Made by a program: the position numbers and the translations under genes. 45,769 nucleotides of DNA from a virus, in IMG/VR virus record IMGVR_UViG_3300008108_000097, positions 1-45,769 of that record; one strand, written 5' to 3'. This document shows, piece after piece, positions 1-25,818 of the stretch. Position 1 is the first letter of the stretch, and every line of letters starts with the position of its first letter. A model generated the notes under the pieces. It did not search any database, was not told the DNA's origin, and saw nothing but the letters and a program-made list of their open reading frames with translations.

Positions 1-1
1 T

Positions 2-2455: not shown

Positions 2456-2478
2456 CCAGTTTTACCTAAATCATTGAC

Positions 2479-2524
2479 ACTCCTAAGATAAAATAGTATA
2501 GTACTATTAACTTAGGAGTTTTTT
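2479..2524 (+). terminator. Terminator-like hairpin whose 3' arm carries the next gene's ribosome binding site
   Basis: ACTCCTAAG (2479-2487) pairs perfectly with CTTAGGAGT (2511-2519). Inside, AATAGTA (2492-2498) pairs with TACTATT (2502-2508) around a 3-nt loop. A T-run (2519-2524) follows, giving a rho-independent terminator shape, although the stem is AT-rich. The AGGAG of the right arm is also the only ribosome binding site for the GTG start at 2525, so folding would hide it. Confidence 0.65.
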
Positions 2525-2881
2525 GTGGACGAAAGAGTTCAAAAGGCATTTGATAATGCCAATTATATGGCTACGTTGGTTAGCCAAAAAAATATTTTAA
2601 ATGAAGAATTTTTACAAAGTCTTCTCTATTACGAAAATGGAGGAACTTTTACGTCTTCGAAAGAATTGATTAATTTTTCTAAAACTTTATTAGATATTGG
2701 TTATACAGAAAATGTAGTTTTAGTAGATGATAACAATACCCCTGTCAATATAGAAAATCTCAAAACTTTTTTTGATAAGGTAGTTTCAGTTTATTTTGAA
2801 TCAGCTAATGCTTATTACAACAAGCATAGTTCATTAATCAAACAGCGTAAAATAGAAAGTTTGATTGATCTTTATGACTAA
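2525..2881 (+). CDS. Hypothetical protein, first gene of the accessory island
   Basis: This is a 118-residue protein that I do not recognise. It starts with GTG, justified by AGGAG six bases upstream inside the hairpin arm. It appears all-helical by composition, with no membrane segment, signal peptide or cysteine motif. Its end overlaps the start of the next gene (ATGACTAA), which suggests translational coupling to the glycosyltransferase-like gene downstream. It may be a small helper or chaperone of the island, but nothing in the sequence shows that. Confidence 0.6.
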   Translation: MDERVQKAFDNANYMATLVSQKNILNEEFLQSLLYYENGGTFTSSKELINFSKTLLDIGYTENVVLVDDNNTPVNIENLKTFFDKVVSVYFESANAYYNKHSSLIKQRKIESLIDLYD

Positions 2882-3704
2882 AGGTGTGTTGTTATTTGCT
2901 TTAAATAATTCTGAAATTAATTATATAAAGCTAGCTGAAGATACTGCTAAAAGAGTACATAAATTTTTACAAGTGCCAGTGTCTGTAGTTACAGATGAAG
3001 AATCATCTTTGTTAATAAATGATAAATTGTTATTTGATAACATCATAATTATTGAAAATGAGAAATATCATCTTAAAAGATTTCACGACGGCGACAAAAT
3101 ATCTAAAACTCATTGGAAAAATTCTCACAGAAATGATAGTTTTGATTTGTCCCCGTACGATGAGACTCTTGTAATAGATGTTGATTATGTAATAAACTCT
3201 AATGTTCTTTCTTATTGTTGGAATCAACCTTATGACTTTTTAATATATAATAAATTTTATGATATAGGCCAAAGAAAAGACGTAAGTGAATTTACACATT
3301 TAAGTGATTATTCTATTCCATTTTACTGGGCTACTGTGTTCTTTTTTAAAAAGACTGAAGAAACAGCTCAGTTTTTTTCTTTAGTATCTCATATTAAACA
3401 GCATTGGCAATATTACAAATTTTTATTTCATCTTAATAGTTCAAGTTTTAGAAATGATTTTGCTTTTAGTATTGCAATTCATATTATGAACGGATATTCG
3501 TCTGGAGAATTTGCAAAACGTTTGCCAGGCAAATTATTTTATACTTTAGATAGAGATATTTTAGTTAAGATAAAAGATAGAGATTTTTATTTTTTAGTTG
3601 AAAATGAAAATAAAGAAAGTGATTATCTGCCTTTGAAATTTTCTAACAATGACATTCACGTAATGAACAAATATAGTTTAATAAGGATGTTAGATAATGA
3701 GTAA
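2874..3704 (+). CDS. Putative GT-A-like glycosyltransferase (paralogue of next gene)
   Basis: The 276-residue protein starts MTKGVLLFALNNSEINY and resembles the downstream gene in layout: an N-terminal beta strand, a central 'LVIDVDYV' and an aromatic-rich 'HWQYYKF' segment. VIDVDYV fits the DxD metal and sugar-nucleotide site of GT-A enzymes. The ATG at 2874 is preferred over 2865 because it overlaps the previous stop in the usual coupled way. Its stop overlaps the next start. The predicted role is transfer of a sugar from a nucleotide donor; donor and acceptor are unknown. The fold is inferred from the motif and from similarity to the neighbour. Confidence 0.55.
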   Translation: MTKGVLLFALNNSEINYIKLAEDTAKRVHKFLQVPVSVVTDEESSLLINDKLLFDNIIIIENEKYHLKRFHDGDKISKTHWKNSHRNDSFDLSPYDETLVIDVDYVINSNVLSYCWNQPYDFLIYNKFYDIGQRKDVSEFTHLSDYSIPFYWATVFFFKKTEETAQFFSLVSHIKQHWQYYKFLFHLNSSSFRNDFAFSIAIHIMNGYSSGEFAKRLPGKLFYTLDRDILVKIKDRDFYFLVENENKESDYLPLKFSNNDIHVMNKYSLIRMLDNE

Positions 3705-4530
3705 AGGTCATGTATTTTTAGCGCAAAATTCTGACGTAGATTATGTTGAGCAAGCCTATGCACTAGCGTTGTCTATTAAAATACATAATCAAGAAAACAA
3801 AACTTGTCTTATTACTAACGACTCAGTTCCAGAAAAATACAGATATGTATTTGATCACATAGTTCCGATTCCATGGAAAGATTCAGCTGCATCTACTCAA
3901 TGGAAAATTGAAAACAGATGGAAGATAATCTATGCAACTCCATTTGAAGAAAATATTGTATATGATGTTGATATGTTGTTATTAGAAAGTAATGACCATT
4001 GGTGGGATTATTTCGAAAACAAAGATTTATGTTTTACTACTCATGTTCGTGATTATAGAGGTAATGTTGTTAACAGCAATTATTACAGAAAATCATTCAC
4101 ACGTAACGGATTAGATAATATTTACACAGGAGCATTTTATTTTAGAAAAGTAAATACTGCTTATGAATTTTTCAAATGGCTTGAAATTATTGTAGTACAT
4201 TGGCAAAAATTTTATAGAATTCATTTAAAAAATCATGCCCAATCTTTTTGTAGCATTGATCTTAGCGCCGCGTTAGCTCTTAGATTTATGGGTACACATG
4301 TAGATAAAGGAGGAATTCCTTCTTTTATTCATATGAAACCAGGTGTGCAAGGATGGAAAAATATTCCATCTAAATGGACAAATGTATTGAACAGTTTTTT
4401 AGATGATGAATTAAATTTAAAAGTGGGAAATTTTCAACAATCTGGATTGTTGCATTATGTAGAAGAAGGTTTCTTAACTGAAAATTTTATTAAAAAATTA
4501 GAAAGTGCTTATGCAAGAAGATATAGTTAA
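3697..4530 (+). CDS. Putative GT-A-like glycosyltransferase
   Basis: The 277-residue protein begins MSKGHVFLAQNSDVDYVEQA, followed by an N-terminal Rossmann-like pattern (ALALSIKIHNQ, then TCLITND) typical of GT8/GT-A transferases. The DxD candidate is NIVYDVDMLLLE near residue 90. The sequence FFKWLEIIVVHWQKFYR corresponds to a similar segment in the preceding gene, so the two are tandem duplicates that have diverged. It overlaps the previous gene by 8 bases. It probably acts in the cytoplasm on a nucleotide-sugar donor. A specific family number cannot be assigned from sequence reading alone. Confidence 0.6.
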   Translation: MSKGHVFLAQNSDVDYVEQAYALALSIKIHNQENKTCLITNDSVPEKYRYVFDHIVPIPWKDSAASTQWKIENRWKIIYATPFEENIVYDVDMLLLESNDHWWDYFENKDLCFTTHVRDYRGNVVNSNYYRKSFTRNGLDNIYTGAFYFRKVNTAYEFFKWLEIIVVHWQKFYRIHLKNHAQSFCSIDLSAALALRFMGTHVDKGGIPSFIHMKPGVQGWKNIPSKWTNVLNSFLDDELNLKVGNFQQSGLLHYVEEGFLTENFIKKLESAYARRYS

Positions 4531-5101
4531 ACCTTTCATAGAAGCCTATGAAGTAAAAAGTTTTTTTGTACATTATGATAATGACGGTAAAGTTTATTTG
4601 GCTAGTAATGTTAAAGATGAAAGTTTAAATAATTTTGAAATTAGCATACATTTAATTCCAAATTTTATTCGAGGCATTAAAGATTGTACAAAATACAAAA
4701 TTGACTATTTCTTTAATATTAGTGCAGGACTTATTTCAGACACAGAGGAACAAGAAGATCTTATAAAAACTGATTATATTCTGTATGAAATTCCAAAAAA
4801 AGATTTAACAAATTGTGATGTAATTTTTGAATATAACATACAAGAAAAAGTTTGGATTGCAACTACAACGTCTCAAGCAACAGATAGATTAACTATTGTA
4901 TCTACCGTTCCTTTTTATATTTGTAAAAAAGACAACCCGTGTTTTTTGATAGCAGAATATATAGCAAGTGCAACTGACTTGATTAACGGACCAGTATCGT
5001 TCGAGTTTACTTCTAATATGGAACTAGATTTTTCAAATATTTCAGTGTATACTATTAAAAAGTTTAGAGACTATTGTGTTAAGGAAAAATATGTCCAGTA
5101 A
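4511..5101 (+). CDS. Hypothetical protein of the glycan island
   Basis: This is a 196-residue protein with no motif I recognise. The pattern of short hydrophobic strands (SFFVHYD, FEISIHLIPNF, VIFEYNIQEKVWIATT, VSFEFTSNMELDFS) suggests a beta-sandwich or immunoglobulin-like fold, so a binding or structural role fits better than catalysis. ATG at 4511 is preferred to the GTG at 4505. It overlaps the genes on both sides (20 bases upstream, 11 bases downstream), which points to coupled expression with the glycosyltransferases. Confidence 0.55.
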   Translation: MQEDIVKPFIEAYEVKSFFVHYDNDGKVYLASNVKDESLNNFEISIHLIPNFIRGIKDCTKYKIDYFFNISAGLISDTEEQEDLIKTDYILYEIPKKDLTNCDVIFEYNIQEKVWIATTTSQATDRLTIVSTVPFYICKKDNPCFLIAEYIASATDLINGPVSFEFTSNMELDFSNISVYTIKKFRDYCVKEKYVQ

Positions 5102-5981
5102 GATTAAAGTTGTTGATCAAGATATTGTATTTTTAAGTTATGATGAGCCTAATGCAGAAAAAAATTATGCAGACTTGGTAAAAAAAGTACCGTGGGCTAA
5201 ACGTGTTCACGGAGTTAAAGGCAGTGATGCGGCACATAAAGCCTGTGCTGCAAAAAGCGAAACTGAATATTTTGTTACAGTTGACGCAGACAATATTGTT
5301 GACCCTAAGTTTTTTCAAGTCGAAATAGACTTAGAAGAACTAGGACTGACTGAAAATCATGTATTCAGTTGGTGCGGCAAAGTACACGTCAATCATCTAA
5401 TGTATGGAAATGGCGGCCTCAAGTTATGGACTCGAAAATTTGTTAATGAAATGAAGACTCACGAAAACTCAGATCCTAATGATCATAAAGGACTAGTTGA
5501 GTTTTGTTTTGATAACAGATATTATCAGTTTAACGAAAACTACAGTGAGAGTTTTACAAACGCAACTCCATTTCAAGCATGGCGTGCAGGATTTCGTGAA
5601 GGCGTAAAAATGAGTTTAAACGAAGGCGCTAAAGCTGATGATATCAAACGTGTTTGGTGGCAAAATTATCAACGTTTGTTAATATGGTGTAACGTTGGTG
5701 CTGATGTAGAGAACGGTATCTGGAGTATGCTAGGAGCCAGAGAAGGCTGCTATATGACAAACTGTACAGATTGGGATTATGCTAATGTTAGAGATTTTGA
5801 CTATCTTACAAATTATTGGAAAGAAAAACATGAAGATAAAACAGATCCTGATGACTACAGTGTCTGGTTAAGCAGTCAGCTTAAAACTGAATTAGATTTA
5901 GAAATATCAAATATTGACAAGGAAGGTTCTAAATTTTTTAAAAGAGTTTATACCAACACGGATAGAATTCTAAAAAGATGA
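5091..5981 (+). CDS. Phage GT2-like glycosyltransferase with intact DxD
   Basis: The 296-residue protein reads DIVFLSYDEPNAEKNY near its start, then AKRVHGVKGSDAAHKAC, then YFVTVDADNIVDPKFF. This order (N-terminal strand, VHGVKG motif, DxD at about residues 65-67) is shared with the C-terminal domain of the gene at 21190-22158, so the two belong to one phage glycosyltransferase family. The start at 5091 has AAGGA spaced correctly upstream; an upstream in-frame ATG at 5076 lacks this. The stop overlaps the following radical SAM gene by four bases. The acceptor is unknown. The family assignment rests on the two paralogues in this window and the GT-A-type DxD. Confidence 0.65.
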   Translation: MSSKIKVVDQDIVFLSYDEPNAEKNYADLVKKVPWAKRVHGVKGSDAAHKACAAKSETEYFVTVDADNIVDPKFFQVEIDLEELGLTENHVFSWCGKVHVNHLMYGNGGLKLWTRKFVNEMKTHENSDPNDHKGLVEFCFDNRYYQFNENYSESFTNATPFQAWRAGFREGVKMSLNEGAKADDIKRVWWQNYQRLLIWCNVGADVENGIWSMLGAREGCYMTNCTDWDYANVRDFDYLTNYWKEKHEDKTDPDDYSVWLSSQLKTELDLEISNIDKEGSKFFKRVYTNTDRILKR

Positions 5982-7312
5982 AAGATAAAATTAATGAGTT
6001 TAGAAACAAACTAAACTTTATTAGTCCTAGTTTCTGTGTTGCTAAATGGAAGCAAGTAACAATACATTTAGCAACTGGTCAAACTCATAGTTGTCATCAT
6101 CCTGTAGCTCATAAAATTCCTCTAAATGAAATTGCTGTAAATGTAAGTGCATTGCATAATACATCTTTTAAAAAGCAACAGCAATTAGCAATGATTGATG
6201 GCATTAGACCAGCTGAATGCGATTACTGCTGGAAGGTTGAAGATACCTCCTTAGATGTGTACAGCGATCGTATAATGAAAAGTGTAGACAGTTGGGCTAT
6301 CAATCATATTGATTCTATTGTTGCAAATCCTTTAGGAAATCATAATCCTAGTTATTTAGAAGTCAGTTTCAGCAACACTTGTAATTTTAAATGCAGCTAT
6401 TGCAGTCCTGAAGCAAGTTCAAAATGGACTGAAGAAATTAAACAACATGGCGCTTATCCTACCAGTACAAATTTTAACAATTTAGAATGGTTAAAGAGTC
6501 AGGACAAATTGCCAGTATCAGAATCTGAGTACAATCCTTATGTTGAAGCTTTTTGGGAATGGTGGCCTACACTATATCCTAGCTTAGAAGTTTTACGTAT
6601 TACTGGCGGCGAACCTTTGTTAACTAAAAACACATTTAAAGTTTTAGACTACATTATACAAAATCCTAGACCAAATTTAGAACTTAATATTAATAGTAAC
6701 TTAGGTGTACCCTCTAAAATTTTTAATCAGTTTATTGATAAGATAAAATTCATTCAAGAAAATAATTTAATAAAATCTTTTAAACTTTACACTAGTGCAG
6801 AGGCACACGGTGCTAACGCAGAATATATTAGATTTGGACTTAATTATCAAGAGTGGAAAGAAAATTGTAATAAATTTTTAAAAGAAGTACCAAATGGTAA
6901 GCTCACTGTAATGTCAACGTACAATGCATTAAGCGTTACAAGTTACTTAGATTTCTTAAAAGATTGGATAGATTTAAGAAGCCAGCATAACAAGAAAAAT
7001 CTAAGTTTAGATATCTCTTATCTTAGATGGCCTCCTCATCAAAATATATTCATCCTGGATCAATCTTTTATTAAATACTTTGATAATCAATTAAGCTACA
7101 TAAAGTCTGGAGAGTTTTTTGATCATGAAATTCATAGATTTGAAAGAATTTATAAATTATTTGAAAATCATGTAAAAAACAATCAATCTAAAATACAAGA
7201 CCAAAAAGATTTTGCAGCATTTGTTATAGAACATGATAAAAGGAGAGGCACAAGTTTTCAAAATACATTCCCTGAAATGAATGAATTTTTGCAAAAATGT
7301 AAACAGCTATGA
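5978..7312 (+). CDS. Radical SAM enzyme with N-terminal twitch-like cysteine cluster (copy 1)
   Basis: The 444-residue protein has the radical SAM motif CNFKCSYC at residues 135-142 and ITGGEPLL near 208-215, the SAM-binding GGEP loop. Before the core are four conserved cysteines (20, 39, 81, 84) in the contexts FCVAKW, HSCHHP and CDYCW. These are suited to bind an auxiliary Fe-S cluster, and this module normally lies after the core. I recall a family described as 'twitch domain-containing radical SAM protein' with an N-terminal twitch. The reaction is unknown; sugar or peptide tailoring is plausible from context. It overlaps neighbours on both sides by four bases. Paralogues lie at 7309 and 14912. 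Confidence 0.8.
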   Translation: MKDKINEFRNKLNFISPSFCVAKWKQVTIHLATGQTHSCHHPVAHKIPLNEIAVNVSALHNTSFKKQQQLAMIDGIRPAECDYCWKVEDTSLDVYSDRIMKSVDSWAINHIDSIVANPLGNHNPSYLEVSFSNTCNFKCSYCSPEASSKWTEEIKQHGAYPTSTNFNNLEWLKSQDKLPVSESEYNPYVEAFWEWWPTLYPSLEVLRITGGEPLLTKNTFKVLDYIIQNPRPNLELNINSNLGVPSKIFNQFIDKIKFIQENNLIKSFKLYTSAEAHGANAEYIRFGLNYQEWKENCNKFLKEVPNGKLTVMSTYNALSVTSYLDFLKDWIDLRSQHNKKNLSLDISYLRWPPHQNIFILDQSFIKYFDNQLSYIKSGEFFDHEIHRFERIYKLFENHVKNNQSKIQDQKDFAAFVIEHDKRRGTSFQNTFPEMNEFLQKCKQL

Positions 7313-8694
7313 GTCGAGAAACAGACAAAATTAGAAAAGTTATAGAAATAACAAATGAAATTAGTCCTACATTTTGTTTGGCTAAATGGCATCATGTAAC
7401 TATGTATATGCACATGGGACAAACGCACAGTTGCTATCATCCTGCACCTCATGATATTCCGTTAATTGAATTAAAAACTAATCCCAGCGCATTGCACAAC
7501 ACTATTCAAAAGAAAAAAGAACGTGCTGAAATGCTAGTAGGAGAAAAACCAAAAGGTTGTCAGTACTGTTGGAATGTGGAAAACTTAGGTGGTGATCATA
7601 TCAGTGATAGGCACATTCGTAATGCAGCATTGTATCGACCTGAAATGGTAGACGAAATAACATCAAACAGATGGGATCTTAATGTAAATCCAGACTACAT
7701 TGAAATTAGTTTTAGTAACGAATGTAACTTTAAGTGCGGTTATTGTCATCCTAAACACTCTAGTAGTTACTACAGCGAAATCAAACAGCATGGTCCTTAC
7801 CCTAAAGTAAAAAATCACGGCAACAGTATTGAATGGTTCAAAGTTCAACAAGAAGAAGATAATCCGTGGATTGAAGCTTGGTGGAAATGGTGGCCAGAAA
7901 TGTCTAAGACATTAAACATTCTTCGCATCACCGGCGGAGAACCGTTAATGCATAAAAGTACTTGGAGATTATTTGACACACTTCGTGAAGAACCTAAACC
8001 TCATTTAGAACTTAATATTAATAGTAACCTTGGTGTAAAAACAGCAATGGTTGAAAAGTTAGCTGACAATGTAAATGATTTATTATCTAACAATAAGATA
8101 AAAGAATTTAAAGTTTTTTCAAGTATGGACACTTGGGGTAAACGTGCTGAGTATCTACGTACAGGTCTTGATTTAGAATTATGGGAAAAGAACTTAGATC
8201 TGTTTATTAGAAAAACAGCAAGGCCTGTAACTTTTATGTGTACCTTTAATATATTAAGTGTAACCAGTTACGTTTCTTTTTTAGAAAAAGTTTTAGAATG
8301 GCGATCAAAATACAAAGACATTTACGATAGTTCTAAAACTAGAAAGATTATTTTTGATATTCCTTATCTAAAAGAACCATTACAATATGACATGCTTATT
8401 TTACCTAAGGAAGAATATCTTCCTTATTTTGATAAAATTTTAAATTTTGTTAAAGACAACTTAGATGAAAATGATTCTACTAAGTTTAGCGATTTAGAAT
8501 ATGAAAGATTCAGACGTGTAAGAGATTACTTTGCTACTAAAACATATTCAGAAGAAAGAATACTAGAAGGTAGAAAAGATTTTTACAACTGGTTTACGGA
8601 ATATGACAAACGAAGAGATGTAAATTTCTTAGAGACTTTTCCTGAAATGACTACATTTTTTGAAGAGTGCCAACAACTGAATAATAAGGAGTAA
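7309..8694 (+). CDS. Radical SAM enzyme with N-terminal twitch-like cysteine cluster (copy 2)
   Basis: The 461-residue paralogue immediately follows copy 1. Auxiliary-cluster cysteines are at 23, 42, 84 and 87 (FCLAKWHHV, HSCYHP, CQYCW). The radical SAM motif CNFKCGYCHP is at 139-146, and RITGGEPLM follows about 90 residues later. The C-terminal pattern (DKRR near the end, then a TFPEM segment) matches copy 1, so the similarity is end to end, not just in the core. The region between the GGEP loop and the C-terminus differs most, suggesting different substrates. It starts in an ATGA overlap with copy 1 and ends one base before the 2OG oxygenase. Confidence 0.8.
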   Translation: MSRETDKIRKVIEITNEISPTFCLAKWHHVTMYMHMGQTHSCYHPAPHDIPLIELKTNPSALHNTIQKKKERAEMLVGEKPKGCQYCWNVENLGGDHISDRHIRNAALYRPEMVDEITSNRWDLNVNPDYIEISFSNECNFKCGYCHPKHSSSYYSEIKQHGPYPKVKNHGNSIEWFKVQQEEDNPWIEAWWKWWPEMSKTLNILRITGGEPLMHKSTWRLFDTLREEPKPHLELNINSNLGVKTAMVEKLADNVNDLLSNNKIKEFKVFSSMDTWGKRAEYLRTGLDLELWEKNLDLFIRKTARPVTFMCTFNILSVTSYVSFLEKVLEWRSKYKDIYDSSKTRKIIFDIPYLKEPLQYDMLILPKEEYLPYFDKILNFVKDNLDENDSTKFSDLEYERFRRVRDYFATKTYSEERILEGRKDFYNWFTEYDKRRDVNFLETFPEMTTFFEECQQLNNKE

Positions 8695-8695
8695 T

Positions 8696-9427
8696 ATGGA
8701 AAAGTTAACAGATATGTTTGAAAAAAATGTTTTTCAAACAACTAGCGATTACACAACGGCACAACCAGGGCCGATGGGAGTAGTTGATAATTTTCTACCT
8801 AAAGATGTAGCCCTATCATTATACAATGAAATGTTTGCTATTCCTGATGAGCATTGGAGAATTTTTAATAGGAACGGAAGTCACATGATGGAGTTAAACA
8901 AACTTAATTTAGCTCCTCTTGCATTTAATCTTGTAAACTATTTGCATAGCTCTCAAGTATTAAAACAACTATCTGATCTAACCGGTATTCCTAATCTTAT
9001 TCCTGATCCACATTTAATTGGTGCAGGATATAGTAAATCATTCCCTGGAGATGTACTTAATCTTCATACTGATTTCAACTGGAATGACAGTTTAAAACTG
9101 CACAGAGCACTTTCTTTGATTATATATCTAACTCCCAATTGGAACCCTGAATGGAACGGGGGATTAGATTTTTATGATGACAAAAGACAAGCGCCTGTTA
9201 CACATGTTGACTGTCTATTTAATAGATGTTTAATATGGAACTATCATAAGTACGGATGGCACGGACATCTTAAGCCATTGGCGTGCCCAGTAGAAACCCC
9301 AAGAACAACTTTTAGATTATTTTACTACACAAGTAATTCTACATACAAACAAGATGATCCTCCTCATAGAAGCCAATATTGGATAGATGATAACGGATTA
9401 CCTACAGATAACAGAAACCAATTATGA
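8696..9427 (+). CDS. 2-oxoglutarate/Fe(II)-dependent oxygenase, prolyl 4-hydroxylase type
   Basis: The 243-residue enzyme shows the metal-binding triad and co-substrate residue expected of this family: LHTDFNW (His124, Asp126), GWHGHLKPL (His near 189) and TPRTTFRLFYYT (Arg near 203 for 2-oxoglutarate). GGLDFYDD between them is the usual turn before the second His. It would use O2 and 2-oxoglutarate to hydroxylate a substrate. Neighbours suggest a sugar, lipid or fibre-protein side chain, but the substrate cannot be read from the sequence. AAGGAG precedes ATG at 8696, and the stop overlaps the next start. Confidence 0.8.
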   Translation: MEKLTDMFEKNVFQTTSDYTTAQPGPMGVVDNFLPKDVALSLYNEMFAIPDEHWRIFNRNGSHMMELNKLNLAPLAFNLVNYLHSSQVLKQLSDLTGIPNLIPDPHLIGAGYSKSFPGDVLNLHTDFNWNDSLKLHRALSLIIYLTPNWNPEWNGGLDFYDDKRQAPVTHVDCLFNRCLIWNYHKYGWHGHLKPLACPVETPRTTFRLFYYTSNSTYKQDDPPHRSQYWIDDNGLPTDNRNQL

Positions 9428-14915: not shown

Positions 14916-16423
14916 GTAATTACAATCAAGCTGCTGACACAGCAGAAAAACAGCTAAACCTTATTAGCAAATCAATGTGCTATGCAAAATGGACGCAGGC
15001 AAGTATGCATCTGACCAATGGAATGACTCACAGTTGCTATCATCCTCCGTTGCATAAAATCAGTATAGACGATATTAAAAAAAATCCAGCTGCTCTACAT
15101 AACACAGATCATAAAAAATTAGAACGCAAGTTAATGCTTAAGGGCGAACGACCTGATGGATGCAGCTACTGTTGGAGAATTGAAGATGCTGGAGCACGTA
15201 GTGATCGTATATACCGAAGCGGTGAATACTGGGCTCAAAACGCACGTAAAGATATTATTGAAGCATTAGACACAGGCAATGTAGATCCTCGTTATTTAGA
15301 AGTTAACTTTAATCAAGCATGTAACTTTAAATGTATGTATTGCAGTCCTCACCTTAGCACTAGTTGGGAAGACGAAGTTGAACAACATGGACCTTACAAT
15401 GTTTTAGACTCCAACGGCAATGCTAGCAAGCACAATGCACTAGAGTATCTCAACATGCCATTGAAAGTAAAACAAGGAGACAATCCCTATGTTGAAGCTT
15501 TTTGGAAGTGGTGGCCTCAGTTGTATAAGAAATTAGAAGTGTTCCGTATGACTGGCGGAGAACCTCTAATGGATGCTAACACATTTAAAGTTCTTGATTA
15601 CATTTATGAAAACCCCAATGCTTGGTTAGAAGTAAGTGTAACAACAAACATGTGTCCTCCTAAGCAAGAACTAATGGATAAGTTTGTTGAAAAAGTAAAG
15701 AAGCTTGAAAAAATACAAATATGGGAAGAAAAAGAAAGATTTAATCCCGGCTCAGGCAATAACTGGTATGTGAATATGGCAGTTAAAAACTTTGCCTTAT
15801 TTGTCAGCGTAGATAGCGTTGACGAACAAGCTGAATATATTCGTTTAGGTTTAAACTTTCAAACAATGAAAGACAATGTATCAAGGTTCTTAACAGAAAC
15901 TTCTAATACTACAGTTACATTTATTAACACTTTTAATATTTTAAGTGTCCCTAAGATTAAAAATTATTTAGAGTATGTTCTTGAGCTTAGAAAAGAATTT
16001 TCAAAAGAAAAACAAGGCATAAAATATATTCCTATTGTTGATCCTTGGACAAAACATCCTGACTATGAAATTCATCCTCGTCAACGTATTTGGTTCGATG
16101 TTCCTTTATTAAGAAGTCCAGAATGGCAGAGCGTACAACTACTACCTTATGAGTTTGATATCTATTTAGAAGAAGCAATAGAGTTTATGAAAGCCAACAG
16201 CAATGTTGATAACTTTGATGGATTTTATGATTTTGAAATAGCTAAACTTGAAAGAAATCTTGCAATAATGAGAGAAAGAACTTCATTAGATTTTAACAAG
16301 CTAGCATTAGATAGAAAAAACTTTGCCAGTTATTTTGATCAATATGATGTTAGAAAAAACTTAAACTTGTCAACAACATTTCCTGAGTTAGCAGCCTTTT
16401 ATCAAAATTGTAAAAAATTATGA
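14912..16423 (+). CDS. Radical SAM enzyme with N-terminal twitch-like cysteine cluster (copy 3)
   Basis: This is the largest of the three paralogues, 503 residues. Auxiliary cysteines are at 23, 42, 84 and 87 (MCYAKWTQA, HSCYHP, CSYCW), the radical SAM motif CNFKCMYC at 137-144, and RMTGGEPLM follows. It carries an extra insertion after the SAM loop (around KEKQGIKYIPIVDPWTK) that the other two lack, and the same DxYDVRKN / TFPEL ending. The four-cysteine N-terminal module is conserved in spacing with copies 1 and 2, which argues for a conserved auxiliary cluster. Overlaps of four bases occur on both sides. The substrate is unknown. Confidence 0.8.
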   Translation: MSNYNQAADTAEKQLNLISKSMCYAKWTQASMHLTNGMTHSCYHPPLHKISIDDIKKNPAALHNTDHKKLERKLMLKGERPDGCSYCWRIEDAGARSDRIYRSGEYWAQNARKDIIEALDTGNVDPRYLEVNFNQACNFKCMYCSPHLSTSWEDEVEQHGPYNVLDSNGNASKHNALEYLNMPLKVKQGDNPYVEAFWKWWPQLYKKLEVFRMTGGEPLMDANTFKVLDYIYENPNAWLEVSVTTNMCPPKQELMDKFVEKVKKLEKIQIWEEKERFNPGSGNNWYVNMAVKNFALFVSVDSVDEQAEYIRLGLNFQTMKDNVSRFLTETSNTTVTFINTFNILSVPKIKNYLEYVLELRKEFSKEKQGIKYIPIVDPWTKHPDYEIHPRQRIWFDVPLLRSPEWQSVQLLPYEFDIYLEEAIEFMKANSNVDNFDGFYDFEIAKLERNLAIMRERTSLDFNKLALDRKNFASYFDQYDVRKNLNLSTTFPELAAFYQNCKKL

Positions 16424-17625
16424 TACCTGCTTACTTCGATGATTTAACCGTTAATAATTTGTATAATGAAATTAATTTTCCTTATGCAGTAGCTGATGAC
16501 ATTAACATTATTAAACATCAATTGATAGAATCAGGATTTGTACCTAAATTATTATCTGACTTTGAAGAAAAAGGAATTTACAACATAAGTGTTGGAGTTT
16601 CTAGAGCATGGTCAAAAATTAACGATACAGATAAACATGTGTTAGATTTTATATCTAAAGATGCATTATACCTAGCTAAACAGGGAAAATTAAAAATATT
16701 CTTAAATGGTCAAGGAGAAGGTTGGCCGATGGTATATGATAAATGTGATGGATATGACAGAATACATAAAGTAATGCAAAAATTAGGTCTTCCTAAATTT
16801 AGTGTTATTGTAGGTGATGCGAATTTATTTTTTGAACAAGATTATCATAAATGGTGCTGTGAAAATAATCAATCTCCGATGATAAGGCACTGTTATTTTT
16901 TAACATGTTTTTATTATTTTGATAATAAATTTCCTGAGTATCCTTTGTGTTTAGATGCTATAAAAAATGAAGAATCAAAAGATTTTAACAGTCTAAACAG
17001 AACCAACAGAACTCATAGAATAGAACATTTGTATCGGTTAATTAAAAATAAAGAATATCAAAAAGGATTAGTCAGTGGCCATCTTCCTAAGGACTTTAAA
17101 TTTGTTCCTATGTTTCATAATGTTACATATAAAAATATAAAGACTACGCTAGATGAAGTAGGACCATTAACAGTAGACGGTAAATGGTTTAACGTAAATC
17201 CTGACGGTGATGACACTGCAATTTTTAATCATAATATCTATAAAAACAGTTTACTCAGTGTAATTACAGAATCTTCATATTTTTATTCTGGAATGTTTAT
17301 TACAGAAAAGGCTTTTAAACCTATAGCAGCAGGACACCCTTTTATGATTCTAGGACAACCTGGAATATTAAAATGTTTTAGAGATCTAGGTTATAAAACT
17401 AATTTTTATGGAATAGATCAAAGTTATGATGAGATAATAGATCCTATAACTAGATTTTATCAATTTCATTTAAGTCTAACAAAATGGATGTCATTAAGTA
17501 GGGATCTAAAAATAGAAAATATAAAAAGATCTAAAGATTTAATTGAACACAATTTTAATTTACTTCAATCAAAAAACTATGTTCAAGAATCTTATAACAG
17601 GCTTAAGAAACTATGTTTCTTTTAA
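16420..17625 (+). CDS. Putative glycosyltransferase-like protein with 'EKAFKPIAAG' domain (paralogue 3)
   Basis: The 401-residue protein is the most diverged of the three relatives. The C-terminal domain reads TEKAFKPIAAGHPFMIL, LGYKTNFYGIDQSYDE and LIEHNFNLL. SVITESSYFYSGMF before it corresponds to the strand preceding the EK motif in the others. As in copies 1 and 2 the N-terminal half is unrelated in detail, so these proteins appear to share a donor-binding half and vary the acceptor half. It directly follows radical SAM copy 3 with a four-base overlap. It is followed by an 8-base A-rich gap and the dehydrogenase. Confidence 0.5.
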   Translation: MIPAYFDDLTVNNLYNEINFPYAVADDINIIKHQLIESGFVPKLLSDFEEKGIYNISVGVSRAWSKINDTDKHVLDFISKDALYLAKQGKLKIFLNGQGEGWPMVYDKCDGYDRIHKVMQKLGLPKFSVIVGDANLFFEQDYHKWCCENNQSPMIRHCYFLTCFYYFDNKFPEYPLCLDAIKNEESKDFNSLNRTNRTHRIEHLYRLIKNKEYQKGLVSGHLPKDFKFVPMFHNVTYKNIKTTLDEVGPLTVDGKWFNVNPDGDDTAIFNHNIYKNSLLSVITESSYFYSGMFITEKAFKPIAAGHPFMILGQPGILKCFRDLGYKTNFYGIDQSYDEIIDPITRFYQFHLSLTKWMSLSRDLKIENIKRSKDLIEHNFNLLQSKNYVQESYNRLKKLCFF

Positions 17626-17633
17626 AATAAAAA

Positions 17634-18809
17634 ATGAAAAATGTATCAATGATTGGTTGCGGAAACTTAGGTATTAATTGTGCCGAAGTAATGGCTACAA
17701 AACATAAAGTAGTTGGCTACGATGTAGTTCCGAGAACCCCTGCAAATTTCTTAATGGTAAATTCTATCAAAGAAGCAGTAGAAGGAAAAGACATAATCTT
17801 TATTGCTGTACCAACTCCTCATGATAAAGAATATGGAGGAGAAACTCCTTCTAGTCACTTACCTCCTAGAGATTTTTTATATGATACAGTAATTAATTGT
17901 TTAATTGAAATTAACAAATATGTCGATAAGAATCAAATAGTTGTATTAGTTTCAACAGTATTAGTTGGCACAGTAAGAAATCATTTAATAAAATATATTC
18001 CAAATGCTACCTTTGTATACAACCCTTATCTTATTGCAATGGGCACGGTTAAACAAGATATGGCAAATCCAGAAATGATTATCATTGGTACAGAAGATGG
18101 ATCTACTCCTGAAGTACTAGTTGATTTTTATAAGACGTTAATGGAAAACAATCCTCGTTACGAAGTAGGAACTTGGGATGAAGCTGAAAGTATTAAAATG
18201 TTTTATAATACATTTATCAGTATGAAATTAAGCTTTATCAATATGATACAAGATGTAGCTGAATCTAATGGAAACATTGACGTAGATGTAGTAGGAAATG
18301 CATTAATGAAATCTACAAAGATGATTACTAGTGCTAGTTACATGAAAGCAGGTATGGGTGCAGGCGGCGCTTGCCAACCTCGAGATAATATAGCACAACG
18401 ATATTTGTCTAAAAAACTTGATTTGGGTTATGATTTGTTTGAAGCAATTTCTGTATCCAGAGAAGTTCAAGCTGAAAGAATGGCGCAACGATGTTTAGAT
18501 TTTGGCAATACAGTTTGTATTGTAGGTAAAAGTTACAAACCTAAAGTAAATGTAACTGTAGGATCTCCTAGTATGTTAGTTGGACATTACATTTCTAAAC
18601 ACGGCGGATTTTTAAATTACTACGATTTAAACACTGGGGACAATTTTTTTCCTAAAGCTGAAGTCTATCTAATTTCTTATTGGGAAGATTGGGTAGAACA
18701 AATCATTTGGCCAAAAGGATCAGTTGTTATAGATACATGCAGAAAACTTGCACCTATACTAGGTGTGAATGTTATTCATTACGGAAATACAAGGTTATCT
18801 AATAAATGA
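17634..18809 (+). CDS. UDP-glucose/GDP-mannose dehydrogenase family protein
   Basis: The 391-residue protein has an N-terminal NAD-binding site MIGCGNLGINCAE, then IIFIAVPTPHD, the central helix with SIKMFYNTF (Lys188 as substrate-binding Lys) and the catalytic cysteine in GMGAGGACQPRDN (Cys247; the classical form is GFGGSCFPKD). The C-terminal UDP-binding half is present (VCIVGKSYKPKVNV... and a terminal Rossmann-like part), so all three domains are represented. It would oxidise a nucleotide sugar to the uronic acid. The second dehydrogenase in the window, at 33319, lacks the C-terminal domain. No good ribosome binding site precedes ATG 17634. Confidence 0.8.
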   Translation: MKNVSMIGCGNLGINCAEVMATKHKVVGYDVVPRTPANFLMVNSIKEAVEGKDIIFIAVPTPHDKEYGGETPSSHLPPRDFLYDTVINCLIEINKYVDKNQIVVLVSTVLVGTVRNHLIKYIPNATFVYNPYLIAMGTVKQDMANPEMIIIGTEDGSTPEVLVDFYKTLMENNPRYEVGTWDEAESIKMFYNTFISMKLSFINMIQDVAESNGNIDVDVVGNALMKSTKMITSASYMKAGMGAGGACQPRDNIAQRYLSKKLDLGYDLFEAISVSREVQAERMAQRCLDFGNTVCIVGKSYKPKVNVTVGSPSMLVGHYISKHGGFLNYYDLNTGDNFFPKAEVYLISYWEDWVEQIIWPKGSVVIDTCRKLAPILGVNVIHYGNTRLSNK

Positions 18810-19852
18810 TGTTAAAAGCTAATTCAAATACAGAGTGGGGAACACTAAAAGAAGTTATACTAGGTCGTGCTGAATATGCACAGGTTCCTAGTATTAAAAG
18901 ACACGACATACATTGTGTAGACTATGCTAACTACGACATAGTTAATGGATTGCCAGGAGGTTATTATCCGGATCAGATTATTGAAGAAACTGTAGAAGAT
19001 TTAGATGTATTTCAAAAACAGTTAGAGTCTGTAGGTGTTAAAGTTCTCCGACCTAAAGTGTTTGATTATGCTACACAACACAGTAATCCTTATTGGTCTA
19101 CAGATGCTTATTATGGTTATTGCCCAAGAGACAGCACACTAATTATAGGCGACACTATTATAGAAACACCTATGCCTTTACGTGCAAGGTATTTTGAAAA
19201 CTTTGCTTACAAAGATATTTTTAAGAACTACTTTAACGCAGGCAGTCGTTGGATCAGTGCTCCTAAAGGTGAATTGTTAGATGCATTATATGATCGTACA
19301 GATCTAAGTAAGTCTACACTTACAGACTTTGAACCAGCTTTTGATGCTGCTAATGTCATTAAGTGTGGCAAGGATATATTCTACCTTGTTAGCAACAGCG
19401 GCAATAGGATGGGTGCAAAATGGTTACAGAGTACATTAGGTGATCGCTATAAGGTTCATGTAATGGATAATATCTATGCCTACGTACATGTAGATACTAC
19501 AATTCTTCCTTTGGCAGCAGGAACAGTATTGCTAAATCCTAGTAGAGTTAACGAAAATAATTTACCAGAATATTTTAAAAATTGGAAAAAGATTTGGTCC
19601 GAAGATCCTATTGAAACTCCTTATGTTAAAGATTGGGCTACAGCTAGTCCTTGGTTAGGAATGAATGTGTTAAGCATTAGCGATAAACTAGTTGCAGTAG
19701 AATCTAGACAAACTCATTTAATAAAACAATTAGAAAGAAACGGTTTTGATATTATGCCTGTAGTAATGCGTCATTGTCGTACACTCAGTGGCGGCCCTCA
19801 CTGTGCTACATTAGACACAGTTAGAGATGATGAATACGGCGACTATAGTTAA
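18806..19852 (+). CDS. Amidinotransferase (glycine / inosamine-phosphate amidinotransferase-like)
   Basis: The 348-residue protein starts NTEWGTLKEVILGRAE after the initiator, the classic first strand of amidinotransferases. It continues with the PFWSTD-like NPYWSTDAYY, EPAFDAANV (catalytic Asp), YVHVDTTILPL (catalytic His region) and the nucleophile Cys333 in GGPHCATLDTVR. These residues match the arginine:glycine and arginine:inosamine-phosphate enzymes that move an amidino group from arginine to an amine. Next to sugar-nucleotide genes the acceptor is more likely an amino-sugar or amino-cyclitol than glycine, but this is inference. It overlaps the dehydrogenase by four bases and ends the main run of the island. 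Confidence 0.85.
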   Translation: MMLKANSNTEWGTLKEVILGRAEYAQVPSIKRHDIHCVDYANYDIVNGLPGGYYPDQIIEETVEDLDVFQKQLESVGVKVLRPKVFDYATQHSNPYWSTDAYYGYCPRDSTLIIGDTIIETPMPLRARYFENFAYKDIFKNYFNAGSRWISAPKGELLDALYDRTDLSKSTLTDFEPAFDAANVIKCGKDIFYLVSNSGNRMGAKWLQSTLGDRYKVHVMDNIYAYVHVDTTILPLAAGTVLLNPSRVNENNLPEYFKNWKKIWSEDPIETPYVKDWATASPWLGMNVLSISDKLVAVESRQTHLIKQLERNGFDIMPVVMRHCRTLSGGPHCATLDTVRDDEYGDYS

Positions 19853-19904
19853 AATTTTTTGATGTCCCTCTTGTGTTGATAATTACTATATCACGAGGTA
19901 AACG
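19853..19904 (+). other. Short intergenic gap before the repeat-array gene
   Basis: This 52-base gap begins with AAAATTTTTT directly after the stop codon and ends with CGAGG, a fair ribosome binding site for ATG 19905. I see no GC-rich hairpin and no convincing -35/-10 pair, so neither a terminator nor a promoter is claimed. Confidence 0.4.
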
Positions 19905-21203
19905 ATGTACGATATATTTTTTGTAGGTAAAAGTAACGACGAATATCAAAAATTAAAAATAAGATTTCCGTTAGCAAAACAAGTTGATAACTTTGCTCAA
20001 GCTAAACAAATGAGTTTGACAAAAATGTTTTGGGTAATATGGGATGATTTAAAGCTAAATCTAAATTTTAATTTTGATTATAAAGTCCCAGAATGGGACA
20101 GACCTTATACACACGTTTTTAAAAATGGCGAGTTCTACGACGGCGTCTGTTTATTTCCTAAAAATGCAAATGTATCAGAAAGAGAACTAAAGCATCGATT
20201 TTTTATTAAGAAAAAAGAAATCGATGTACAGGCAAGTGTTCCTAAAATATATGATATTTTTTATATTGATTCTTGGGAAGAATATCAAGAAGCTCTAACT
20301 ACATCTACAACAGAAATGTTTTGGATGACCGGTAAGAACTTAGAAACACATGCTGACTTTAAGTTTGACATGTACTTTAGCCATTACAATACTGATGACA
20401 GAAATCAAAATCATGCATTTGTACATCAAACTCCGGTGTCTAACTTTTTCAATGGCGTATTTCTTTGCAGTAAGAATAAGCCATTAAGCAAGAAAGAAGT
20501 TGAACATAGATTTCCAATCCATCGTCGAGAGTGGGACATTGTAGCAAGCCTTCCTAAAAACTATGAAAACTATTGCGGACTTGTAACTACATATGAGCAA
20601 TATTTAGAACTGGTAGAAAAGAGTCCTACTGAACTATTTTGGGTAATACCTAATGACGTTAAGTTAGATTCTAACTTTGATTTTAACATTTATTTTAGCC
20701 ATGATAACGATTTCGATAGAAAGACAAATCATGTATTTTTAAATGGTGAGCACTATGACGGAGTAATGCTGTTAAGTAAGCACAGTCCTATAAGTGAGAG
20801 AGAGTTCAAGTACAGATTTTTAACAAATAAAAAAGATTGGGATATTGTTGCAAGTGTTCCTAAGAAGTACGATATTTTTTACATTGACTCATGGGAAGAA
20901 TATCAAGAAGCACTTGAAAGAAGTTCAACAGAGATGTTTTGGATGACAAGCCGTAACATTGCTACAGCCTTAGATTTTGAGTTTGACATTTATTTTAGTC
21001 ATCACAACAGTTATGATAGAGGTCAAACACATGCATTTATACATCGTGTTGGAGATAAAGACAGCTACAACGGTATTTTCCTTTGCAGTAAAAACAAACC
21101 TCTTAGCAAACGTGAAGTAGAGTATAGGACTCCATTAGAACGTAAAGAGTGGGATATTGTTGCTAGTGGTCCTGTAACATATCAGCAGTATGTTGTCAAT
21201 TAA
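19905..21203 (+). CDS. Tandem array of degenerate glycosyltransferase-like domains (part 1)
   Basis: The 432-residue protein consists of four ~100-residue repeats (starting near residues 1, 115, 217 and 321). Each has a (M/L)FWV/M motif, an FxFDxYFSH segment, a HxFxNG-type turn and a closing 'EWDIVAS'. The repeats resemble the central part of the complete glycosyltransferase domain at the end of the next gene (FWVVDGDA ... FNFDYHVPTWD ... HVW). The catalytic-type DGD is replaced by WDD, GKN, PND or SRN, so these copies look non-catalytic. A fifth repeat and the complete domain continue in another frame in the next gene, implying a single ancestral gene. Glycan binding or spacing are plausible roles. 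Confidence 0.65.
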   Translation: MYDIFFVGKSNDEYQKLKIRFPLAKQVDNFAQAKQMSLTKMFWVIWDDLKLNLNFNFDYKVPEWDRPYTHVFKNGEFYDGVCLFPKNANVSERELKHRFFIKKKEIDVQASVPKIYDIFYIDSWEEYQEALTTSTTEMFWMTGKNLETHADFKFDMYFSHYNTDDRNQNHAFVHQTPVSNFFNGVFLCSKNKPLSKKEVEHRFPIHRREWDIVASLPKNYENYCGLVTTYEQYLELVEKSPTELFWVIPNDVKLDSNFDFNIYFSHDNDFDRKTNHVFLNGEHYDGVMLLSKHSPISEREFKYRFLTNKKDWDIVASVPKKYDIFYIDSWEEYQEALERSSTEMFWMTSRNIATALDFEFDIYFSHHNSYDRGQTHAFIHRVGDKDSYNGIFLCSKNKPLSKREVEYRTPLERKEWDIVASGPVTYQQYVVN

Positions 21204-21480
21204 ATCTTATCAAGATTATTTAAAAGCATTAACAGATTCCCCAACTGAGATGTTTTGGGTAGTGCCTGATGATATCGTCATTAGTCCTTCTTTTAAGTTT
21301 GATATTTATTTTAGTCATGACAATGAATATGATCGTAAAATGAATCATGTATTTCTTAACGGGGATCATTATGATGGTATTATGTTAATGAGTAAGCATC
21401 GACCAGTTAGTGAAAGAGAATTTAATAGTAGATTCTTGATTACCCGCAAAGAATGGAACATACAAGCAAGCACCCCAAAA
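20247..21480 (+). repeat. A-B-A-B duplication of ~620 bp across the frame break
   Basis: Repeats 2 and 4 share SWEEYQEAL...TEMFWM and LCSKNKPLSK. Repeats 3 and 5 share YFSHDN...DRK.NHVFLNG and SEREF. A block of two units (20247-20864) was therefore duplicated as 20865-21480. The resemblance is also visible in DNA (GGGAAGAATATCAAGAAGC occurs near 20276 and 20893), so the event is fairly recent compared with the divergence of repeat 1. Confidence 0.7.
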
Positions 21481-22158
21481 TCTAAAATTTATGATATTGT
21501 CTTTATAAGCTATAACGAACCTAATGCAGACAGTAATTTCCAAGCACTAAAAGATAAACAACCTACTGCTAAAAGAGTACACGGAGTTAAAGGTATTCAT
21601 AATGCTCATATAAAAGCAGCTGAAATATCTGATACTCCGTTATTCTGGGTAGTTGACGGTGATGCTTTAATATTAGACAGTTTCAACTTTGACTATCACG
21701 TACCTACATGGGACGCTGAAACAGTTCATGTATGGAGAAGTAAAAATCCTATTAATAATTTAGAATACGGATATGGAGGAGTTAAACTCTTACCTAGACA
21801 ACTAACACTAGGTATGGACACTAGTTCAACTGATATGACAACTAGTATCAGTAACAATTTTAAAATAATGGATAACGCCAGCAACATTACAGCGTTTAAT
21901 ACAGATCCTTTTAACACATGGAAAAGTGCATTTAGAGAATGTGTTAAATTAGCCAGCAAATCTATTAATAGACAAGTAACGGAAGAAACAGAACAGCGCC
22001 TTGATACATGGTGTACACAAGGCGCTGATAAATTGTTTGGGGAATATGCTATTGCAGGAGCAGTAGCAGGTAAACTATTTGCCGAAACACAACCAACCGA
22101 AACTCATAGGATTAATGATTTCGATTGGTTGTATAAAACATTTAAATTAAATTTCTAA
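21190..22158 (+). CDS. Last degenerate repeat plus complete GT2-like glycosyltransferase domain (part 2 of split gene)
   Basis: The 322-residue frame holds repeat 5 (residues 1-97, FWVVPDD) followed by a complete domain: YDIVFISYNEPNADSNF, AKRVHGVKG, LFWVVDGDALI (DxD at 156-158), HVWRSKNP and YGYGGVKLLP. The domain is a paralogue of the gene at 5091. The frame overlaps part 1 by 14 bases in the +1 frame, and removing one base near 21190 would fuse them so that repeat 5 follows repeat 4 without loss. ATG 21190 may only be a frame-internal Met. The end overlaps thyX on the other strand by 12 bases. Confidence 0.65.
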   Translation: MLSIKSYQDYLKALTDSPTEMFWVVPDDIVISPSFKFDIYFSHDNEYDRKMNHVFLNGDHYDGIMLMSKHRPVSEREFNSRFLITRKEWNIQASTPKSKIYDIVFISYNEPNADSNFQALKDKQPTAKRVHGVKGIHNAHIKAAEISDTPLFWVVDGDALILDSFNFDYHVPTWDAETVHVWRSKNPINNLEYGYGGVKLLPRQLTLGMDTSSTDMTTSISNNFKIMDNASNITAFNTDPFNTWKSAFRECVKLASKSINRQVTEETEQRLDTWCTQGADKLFGEYAIAGAVAGKLFAETQPTETHRINDFDWLYKTFKLNF

Positions 22159-25742: not shown

Positions 25743-25772
25743 TAATTGCTCCGAATAATACTGTATGTATAT

Positions 25773-25801: not shown

Positions 25802-25818
25802 TTGATTTTGGCTAGCGA

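What the first reader, a model, noticed from the sequence alone, without database searches (positions are those of the whole stretch)
2525..22158. Phage-encoded glycan pathway island next to tail fibre genes, about 20 kb
Sugar-nucleotide enzymes (epimerase, dehydrogenase), several transferases, three radical SAM enzymes, a 2OG oxygenase, two SGNH esterases and an amidinotransferase are joined by stop/start overlaps in one direction. Together they could build and attach a heavily modified sugar. Its position directly after the fibre genes suggests decoration of virion fibres or the host surface during infection.
Basis: inference. Interest (0 to 1): 0.8.

Follow-up and report, generated by a model that had tools for sequence, protein, structure and literature searches.

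The report
Phage sugar-building operon behind fibres
An uncultured tailed phage carries, right behind its tail-fibre genes, a 19-gene operon that appears to build an unusual sugar chain, probably with a guanidino group like the one in streptomycin, and its promoter signals suggest that it is switched on separately from the fibres, so it may repaint the infected cell rather than, or as well as, the virus.

Summary
Window 2525-22158 has 19 same-strand ORFs, 15 of 18 junctions overlapping: seven glycosyltransferase-like proteins, an SDR, a UDP-sugar dehydrogenase, three twitch-type radical SAM enzymes, a 2OG oxygenase, two SGNH-motif proteins and an amidinotransferase. The fibre link is conserved: 28 of 41 representative loci have a fibre gene upstream on the same strand. 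Two results go further. (1) The amidinotransferase is 46% identical to the Streptomyces griseus one. In 9 of 9 testable loci of its own clade, a 2OG oxygenase, a shortened DegT-type sugar aminotransferase and a B12-type radical SAM enzyme lie in the same locus: a probable guanidino-sugar cassette. The window's phage, held only as fragments, shows neither the aminotransferase nor the B12 enzyme. (2) The gap that starts the island has a sigma70-like promoter in 13 of 27 loci (0.6 expected), whereas gaps further upstream, among structural genes, carry the T4-type late motif in 19 of 24. The glycan genes are probably expressed apart from, and earlier than, the fibres, so host-surface change is at least as likely as fibre decoration. 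Known kind (host recognition cluster), new variant.

The parts
1..1381 (+). tail fibre gene (C-terminal 459 aa; the ORF is 561 aa in sister contig L017)
   Evidence: Peptidase_G2 2e-5, 24.6 bits against a cut-off of 25; PHROG tail fiber 1.9e-7; neighbours collar-domain and virion PHROGs; L017 ORF
1394..2455 (+). putative structural protein ('Str'), between fibre and island
   Evidence: no family hit; position conserved in 27 loci
2474..2502 (+). sigma70-like promoter TTGACA-17-TATAGT that would start the island
   Evidence: only + strand site with 11 of 12 matches in the window, five such on the - strand, 0.87 expected per 20 kb and strand, so weak alone; such a site at the same place in 13 of 27 loci
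2479..2519 (+). hairpin, 9-bp outer stem, whose 3' arm holds the AGGAG before g03; the -10 box lies inside it
   Evidence: -16.9 kcal/mol, z -3.56 for 2470-2530; sequence
2525..2881 (+). g03, small conserved first gene of the operon, function unknown
2865..3704 (+). g04, GT8/glycogenin-like glycosyltransferase
   Evidence: profile A4 vs glycogenin 6.9e-6; DVD motif
3697..4530 (+). g05, GT8/glycogenin-like glycosyltransferase
   Evidence: DVD motif
4505..5101 (+). g06, variable protein of unknown function
   Evidence: no family hit; position conserved
5076..5981 (+). g07, GT-A-like glycosyltransferase (GTx family)
   Evidence: alignment A3; fold of family member g21
5978..7312 (+). g08, N_Twi radical SAM enzyme 1
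   Evidence: NF033640 2.4e-99
7309..8694 (+). g09, N_Twi radical SAM enzyme 2
   Evidence: NF033640 4.8e-93
8696..9427 (+). g10, 2OG-Fe(II) oxygenase of the cassette type
   Evidence: PF13640 8.9e-11; 46-48% identical to the 2OG near the amidinotransferase in L008, L009, L011, L012
9424..10608 (+). g11, GT-B-type glycosyltransferase
   Evidence: family A2, fold of member g17
10605..11612 (+). g12, SDR nucleotide-sugar epimerase/dehydratase
   Evidence: PF01370 7.9e-44; PHROG 540
11591..12976 (+). g13, GT-B-type glycosyltransferase
   Evidence: family A2, fold of member g17
12976..14004 (+). g14, SGNH-motif protein 1
   Evidence: motif only
14001..14915 (+). g15, SGNH-motif protein 2
   Evidence: motif only
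14912..16423 (+). g16, N_Twi radical SAM enzyme 3 (70-72% identical in L008, L009, L012)
   Evidence: NF033640 9.5e-92
16420..17625 (+). g17, GT-B-type glycosyltransferase
   Evidence: model pLDDT 88.7, BshA/VldE/MshA matches
17634..18809 (+). g18, UDP-glucose 6-dehydrogenase-type enzyme
   Evidence: PF03721/PF00984; PHROG 9148 3.5e-84
18806..19852 (+). g19, StrB1-type amidinotransferase
   Evidence: 1bwd 5e-102; 46% to S. griseus; D180, H228, D230, C333 invariant in 8 of 8 rows
19905..21203 (+). g20, repeat protein related by eye to g21, function unknown
   Evidence: no family hit above cut-off; repeats seen
21190..22158 (+). g21, N-terminal repeat plus GT-A-like domain
   Evidence: model, mean pLDDT 74.5, residues 17-96 under 50; GT-A matches

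Best explanation
The island is a soluble, cytoplasmic glycan assembly line carried as one operon (g03-g21) with its own host-type (sigma70-like) promoter, placed next to the receptor-binding fibre genes so that it is inherited with them. UGDH and SDR supply uronic/epimerised nucleotide sugars. The seven GT-like proteins add sugars. The radical SAM, 2OG and SGNH proteins oxidise, rearrange or (de)acylate them, and the StrB1-type amidinotransferase moves an amidino group from arginine to an amino sugar, giving a cationic guanidino sugar. Because the promoter type differs from that of the late fibre genes, the likeliest use is early remodelling of the host envelope glycan that the neighbouring fibre recognises (receptor masking or superinfection exclusion); fibre glycosylation is the close second. 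Shown by sequence: gene content, order, conservation, the cassette in relatives, promoter types. Inferred: the product, the amino-sugar substrate and its source in this phage, the acceptor, the timing.
For: Gene families. Conserved position behind fibres: 28 of 41 reps, order Str-ORF-GT-GT in 25 of 49. Cassette: within 3 kb of the amidinotransferase a short DegT aminotransferase in 16 of 45 reps (16 of 36 with full flanks) and DegT+2OG in 14 of 45, against 0 of 68 for both around radical SAM anchors and 1 of 28 for both around GTb anchors in loci without the gene. Of the 14, 10 have the well-supported 2OG type of g10, and each of the 10 reps with that type near the amidinotransferase also has DegT. 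B12-type radical SAM: 10 of 45 against 0 of 68 and 0 of 28. In the window's own clade 9 of 9 loci with upstream sequence hold all four genes somewhere in the up to 21-kb locus. DegT keeps K124 and D100 in 16 of 16 rows and its profile matches sugar aminotransferases (perosamine synthetase 6.7e-15). A similar combination in Synechococcus phage S-SCSM2R. Promoters. No island protein exceeds a 19-residue hydropathy mean of 1.5, a rough sign that they are soluble.
Against: The window's phage shows no DegT and no B12-binding domain in the 45.8-kb record or the 92-kb sister contig, so its amino-sugar source is unknown; both are fragments. 29 of 45 amidinotransferase reps have no DegT within 3 kb, and 3 of 68 loci without the gene have DegT and 2OG somewhere in the locus. 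In record G016 the DegT and the better amidinotransferase matches lie far from the GT pair. No match to the flippase family PF01943 or the O-antigen ligase/polymerase family PF04932 in 8 of 8 records (other exporter families not searched), so export would need host machinery. 14 of 27 island starts lack a sigma70-like site and 5 of 27 carry the late motif. CP220 has the amidinotransferase and radical SAM genes, but no 2OG or DegT label was found near it.
Confidence: 0.42

Rival explanations
1. Virion decoration: the same enzymes glycosylate the fibre or the adjacent 'Str' protein in the cytoplasm before assembly.
For: Conserved adjacency to fibre genes; enzymes that look soluble, and no match to the two lipid-linked export/ligation families searched; nearest folds include protein- or peptide-glycosylating enzymes such as glycogenin, ppGalNAcT and SunS.
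Against: Island promoter is of a different class from the fibre promoters; fold matches are weak and also include LPS- and capsule-type enzymes.
Confidence: 0.33
2. Modification of phage DNA with the glycan.
For: A sigma70-like promoter would fit an early role; the window also codes QueE- and FolE-like proteins, as in 7-deazaguanine synthesis.
Against: Thymidylate synthase/dCMP-hydroxymethylase family found in 1 of 8 records only, one without amidinotransferase match; QueE and FolE lie on the other strand, about 8 and 10 kb past the island; the conserved neighbours are fibre genes.
Confidence: 0.08
3. Peptide (RiPP-like) modification: the radical SAM array acts on g03 or on the fibre polypeptide, and the GTs add sugars to it.
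For: Up to 11 N_Twi genes over the family cut-off in one relative's record; a small conserved ORF opens the operon; twitch/SPASM enzymes often act on peptides (recalled).
Against: g03 homologues look like an ordinary small protein without a precursor-like core (by eye); DegT, UGDH, SDR and amidinotransferase point to sugars.
Confidence: 0.07
4. Creatine-type auxiliary metabolism: g19 is a glycine amidinotransferase.
For: Viral amidinotransferases have been labelled glycine amidinotransferase: CP220 and a table in PMC8226683 (passage). PMC11360552 (passages) discusses creatine synthesis for a viral GAMT and mentions GATM.
Against: StrB1 scores 345 bits, against 232 for SxtG, 206 for HsvA and at most 189 for L-arginine:glycine amidinotransferase; where neighbours are recognised they are mostly sugar and radical SAM enzymes.
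Confidence: 0.04

Closest known systems
Host recognition cluster of pelagimyophages (Zaragoza-Solas 2020, PMC7029224; passages seen; author name recalled)
   Same: Hypervariable island with tail fibres and several glycosyltransferases (GT8 the commonest family), radical SAM cassettes, and UDP-glucose 6-dehydrogenase among its LPS-type genes, in large T4-like phages of aquatic bacteria
   Different: Placed there between VrlC and gp14 (not tested here); the passages seen mention no amidinotransferase, aminotransferase cassette or promoter switch; the freshwater members there are said to lack radical SAM and LPS genes
Radical SAM/amidinotransferase module of Campylobacter phages CP220 and CPt10 (Timms 2010, PMC2853527; passages seen; author name recalled)
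   Same: Five radical SAM genes plus an amidinotransferase exchanged as a block; in CP220 next to nucleotide-diphospho-sugar transferase-like genes
   Different: Called a putative glycine amidinotransferase of unassigned role; no 2OG or DegT label; divergent (34% and 25% identity)
Synechococcus phage S-SCSM2R cluster (PQ898602)
   Same: GTs, short DegT, radical SAM, annotated 2OG and 'inosamine amidinotransferase' in one run
   Different: About 15 kb from psbA/psbD, fibre linkage not seen in the stretch shown; its 2OG gene has no Pfam hit and its radical SAM protein no B12 domain; no N_Twi match over the cut-off; no paper found under its name
StrB1-type amidinotransferases of Streptomyces (1bwd)
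   Same: 46% identity over nearly the full length, same catalytic residues
   Different: In a quick tree 43 viral rows and 29 bacterial rows are largely apart (3 label changes; two bacterial MAG rows group with a viral clade); no cyclitol pathway recognised in the island
Virion glycosylation of mycobacteriophages (Freeman 2023)
   Same: Glycans on phage virion proteins
   Different: Paper not held; known here only through a sentence and citation in PMC12619734; targets named there are capsid and tail tube

Membership tests
StrB1-type amidinotransferase | catalytic Asp/His/Asp/Cys (residue roles recalled) | tested here: met
   D180, H228, D230, C333 invariant in 8 of 8 rows, aligned to 1bwd
StrB1-type amidinotransferase | closer to inosamine-phosphate enzyme than to glycine enzymes | tested here: met
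   345 vs at most 189 bits
StrB1-type amidinotransferase | uses an amino cyclitol/amino sugar | not testable with these tools
   needs enzyme assay
Guanidino-sugar cassette (2OG, short DegT, B12-type rSAM, AMT) as defined here | all four genes together in the window's phage | tested here: not met
   2OG (g10) and AMT (g19) present, 9.4 kb apart; DegT and B12-binding domain not found in the 45.8-kb and 92-kb fragments; genome incomplete
N_Twi_rSAM NF033640 | score over curated cut-off and CxxxCxxC | tested here: met
   3 of 3
Host recognition cluster | fibres plus GTs in one variable island | tested here: met
Host recognition cluster | between VrlC and gp14 | not tested
   VrlC and gp14 were not searched for
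Lipid-linked O-antigen pathway | own flippase and polymerase/ligase | tested here: not met
   0 of 8 records for PF01943 and for PF04932; other exporter families not searched
Virion protein glycosylation system | glycan found on virion proteins | not testable with these tools
   needs mass spectrometry

The most novel reading that the evidence does not exclude
Large aquatic phages carry largely virus-specific lineages of streptomycin-type amidinotransferases inside fibre-linked glycan operons and make a guanidinylated (arginine-like, cationic) sugar, from a promoter class different from the fibres', to change the very receptor that the neighbouring fibre binds. The fibre and its receptor-masking enzymes would travel as one exchangeable lock-and-key unit.
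Probability: 0.3. Interest if true: 0.8.

Novelty: new variant of a known kind. Interest (0 to 1): 0.62.

Why it matters
If right, it gives a concrete chemistry (a guanidino sugar) and a concrete gene set to a class of phage islands so far described, in the papers seen, as radical SAM, glycosyltransferase or 'glycine amidinotransferase' genes, with related genes in phages as far apart as those of Campylobacter and Synechococcus. It makes the question of what glycans in fibre regions are for directly testable, because promoter class separates early host remodelling from late virion decoration, and it offers many new radical SAM and sugar-modifying enzymes.

Tried and rejected
Megablast of window 1-22200 against phage records: no match. 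PDB profile searches with the GTb and GTx alignments gave nothing usable, hence the two fold predictions. phmmer of g08 against the PDB found nothing better than MoaA at E 0.79. A direct archaeosine-type role for the amidinotransferase was dropped because g19 matches the StrB1/AGAT family, not the QueF-like one (recalled). Recent capture of g19 from a host was not supported: in the tree its clade is viral. That tree is a quick one with long branches flagged (L105 above all); 29 of the 80 bacterial loci were put in, and two of those rows (L183, L194) group with a viral clade. Terminator-like sites in the island region, both strands (14 found, 7.4 expected), were not pursued. Literature searches found no paper that joins phage amidinotransferases with sugar guanidinylation; they saw listings and passages only, and the library lacks most subscription journals.

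Limits of the counts: local family labels were trained on hits from the same loci. The second 2OG label (OGb) is weak: its L023 seed reaches Pfam PF05118 only under the cut-off and its L104 seed has no Pfam hit. One DegT-labelled viral ORF is 605 aa, not short (L123). The 45 amidinotransferase reps come from 84 loci: the best 80 of 369 viral relatives plus earlier loci and two named phages, so they lean to the query. Two reps (L007, L016) are the window's own kind, and 9 lack full 3-kb flanks. The control loci were fetched by similarity to g08, so they match 'glycan island' but not phage lineage. The 28 of 41, 25 of 49 and 13 of 27 include the window's sister contig L017. The 27 gaps include close pairs (for example L082/L085, L087/L088), so they are not independent.
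Full report
What is there. The window is a 45,769-base virus record, evidently a fragment. On the + strand, 2525-22158 holds 19 ORFs with 15 of 18 overlapping junctions. Family scans name an SDR, a UDP-glucose-dehydrogenase-type enzyme, a 2OG oxygenase and three N_Twi radical SAM enzymes. The amidinotransferase matches StrB1 of streptomycin synthesis at 5e-102 and the S. griseus protein at 46% identity. The profile of g04/g05 matches glycogenin. The model of g17 is a confident one with GT-B matches, and the C-terminal domain of g21 gives a weaker GT-A match. The two SGNH proteins are named from motifs only. g03, g06 and g20 stay unassigned.

The surroundings. Upstream lie fibre genes: the sister contig (92 kb, island proteins 100% identical; L007 and L017) adds a collar-domain protein and virion PHROGs. 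Downstream, the other strand codes ThyX, an AAA/VWA pair, a 5'-3' exonuclease, QueE, FolE and a family B DNA polymerase. The polymerase was matched in 7 of 15 records: 73% identical on contigs of 139 and 330 kb, 68% on 236 and 257 kb, 62% on 300 kb, less in two others. So the window is probably part of a genome well over 200 kb (inference).

The fibre link is real. Of 79 loci with a relative of g08, 49 remain at 80% identity; 41 of them have at least 6 kb upstream and 28 of 41 have a fibre-family gene upstream on the same strand, 2.4-12.2 kb away. The other 13 of 41 do not. The order Str - one ORF - GT - GT is seen in 25 of 49, usually followed by g06, GTx and radical SAM. After this core the content varies: more radical SAM copies, GTs, SGNH, SDR, 2OG. 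In 17 records searched, 13 have the GT pair and 15 an amidinotransferase match; 11 have both (G001, G002, G003, G005, G007, G008, G009, G011, G016, G017, G018). In 10 of the 11 the best match lies 13.8-19.2 kb downstream of the pair on the same strand. In G016 only a partial match of 37.5 bits lies there (3.8 kb downstream), and its better matches are elsewhere. G001 is the window's sister contig; G002/G007, G005/G018 and G003/G011/G017 look like near kin, so about seven are distinct.

The guanidino-sugar cassette. An alignment of eight amidinotransferases finds 369 relatives in IMG/VR, 80 kept, and 251 in GTDB genomes, 80 kept. The 84 viral loci held reduce to 45 at 90% identity. Within 3 kb of the gene, 16 of 45 have a DegT-type protein, 22 of 45 a 2OG label, 14 of 45 both, and 10 of 45 a B12-type radical SAM enzyme. 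Around radical SAM anchors in 68 loci without the gene the figures are 0, 6, 0 and 0 of 68; around GTb anchors 1, 7, 1 and 0 of 28. The 2OG type of g10 is near the amidinotransferase in 10 of 45 reps, always with DegT; the other 4 of the 14 rest on the weaker 2OG label. Over whole loci, DegT occurs in 17 of 45 against 3 of 68. The short DegT (194-242 aa in 16 of 17 cases, 605 aa in one; labelled bacterial ones 378 aa and more) lacks the C-terminal part of the family (Pfam match ends near 240 of 360) but keeps the PLP lysine and aspartate positions in 16 of 16 rows (roles recalled). Pfam gives 1.5e-21 and the PDB profile names sugar aminotransferases. In the tree the window's enzyme sits in a supported clade of 11 rows, ten of them other viruses. 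Nine of the ten have upstream sequence, and 9 of 9 hold 2OG, DegT, B12-type radical SAM and amidinotransferase in the locus. L011 shows the set almost alone: 2OG, DegT, B12 radical SAM, amidinotransferase between genes on the other strand. Synechococcus phage S-SCSM2R has a similar run, with the caveats that its 2OG gene has no Pfam hit and its radical SAM protein no B12 domain. Logic by analogy with streptomycin (recalled): a keto sugar or cyclitol is aminated by a DegT/StrS enzyme and then guanidinylated by a StrB enzyme. Of the 80 bacterial loci, 12 have a DegT within the locus, all in Streptomyces, and 4 within 3 kb.

What speaks against it in this phage. Neither the window nor the 92-kb contig holds a DegT or a B12-binding domain, while 4 of 4 relatives searched alongside have the latter. 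Of 7 records with an amidinotransferase match searched for DegT, 6 have it and the sister contig is the seventh; the 523-kb record G006 lacks both. In G016 the DegT lies far from the GT pair. So in the window's phage either these genes lie in the unsequenced part or the amino sugar comes from the host. 29 of 45 reps have no DegT within 3 kb, and several (for example L119, L122, L124, L140, L141, L144, L150) have mostly unlabelled neighbours.

Promoters. In the gap before g03 the window has TTGACA-17-TATAGT (2474-2502), the only + strand site with 11 of 12 matches; five such lie on the - strand, and 0.87 are expected per 20 kb and strand, so alone it proves little. The same gap in 27 loci (the sister contig included) carries a sigma70-like site in 13, against 0.59 expected and at most 3 in 300 simulations; NATAAATA occurs in 5, expected 1.46. 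In the same loci, gaps of 30 nt or more upstream of Str carry NATAAATA in 19 of 24 and sigma70-like sites in 1 of 24; gaps directly before Str, 3 and 0 of 10; gaps inside the island, 5 and 1 of 24. NATAAATA is the described late promoter of T4-like cyanophages (PMC2984593, passage). In the sister contig an AATAAATA stands before the fibre gene. The same review notes genes with both early and late promoters, so timing is inferred, not shown. The island promoter of the window lies within a hairpin whose 3' arm covers the ribosome-binding site (z -3.56). A read-through transcript from the fibres would hide the site, and one from the promoter would not; this is inference, and many relatives lack a comparable hairpin.

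Mechanism and rivals. The island proteins look soluble by a rough hydropathy test, and 0 of 8 records match the flippase or ligase/polymerase families searched, so the glycan is probably built in the cytoplasm on a protein, a host lipid carrier or LPS core, or DNA. Promoter class favours an early host-directed role. Adjacency and solubility fit fibre decoration too. DNA is less likely: the hydroxymethylase/thymidylate synthase family was found in 1 of 8 records, one without the amidinotransferase. A creatine role is unlikely on bit scores.

Known and new. PMC7029224 (passages) described fibre-bearing hypervariable clusters with glycosyltransferases and radical SAM cassettes and proposed change of the host O-chain. 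PMC2853527 (passages) described an exchangeable radical SAM plus amidinotransferase module in Campylobacter phages without assigning its role. I found no earlier account of the recurring cassette, the StrB1 rather than glycine affinity, the conserved core order with the promoter change at the island boundary.

Noticed in passing
window 2474-2519: Promoter inside a hairpin that covers the ribosome-binding site of g03; might allow translation only from the internal promoter, as recalled for some T4 genes
   Followed up: partly
window 24531-26910: MoxR-type AAA ATPase and DUF2201 metallopeptidase/VWA pair, each with a sigma70-like promoter in its upstream gap
   Followed up: no
window 29929-30792 and 32569-33267: QueE-like and GTP cyclohydrolase genes, a hint of 7-deazaguanine DNA modification; the 541-aa ORF 38375-40000 has no Pfam or PHROG hit
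   Followed up: no
window 33319-34128: Second UDP-sugar dehydrogenase-like gene of 269 aa without a C-terminal domain hit
   Followed up: no
records G003, G011, G017: PolB (G003, G011) and an N_Twi gene (all three) are read with one internal stop each; interruption, recoding or intron not examined
   Followed up: no
records behind L012, L111, L113, L015, L024: 14 to 17 N_Twi matches in one phage record, of which 7 to 11 are over the family cut-off (weaker matches ring in control genomes too)
   Followed up: no
L106 and L110: Two amidinotransferase genes in one locus, on opposite strands, flanking the DegT/B12 radical SAM pair
   Followed up: no
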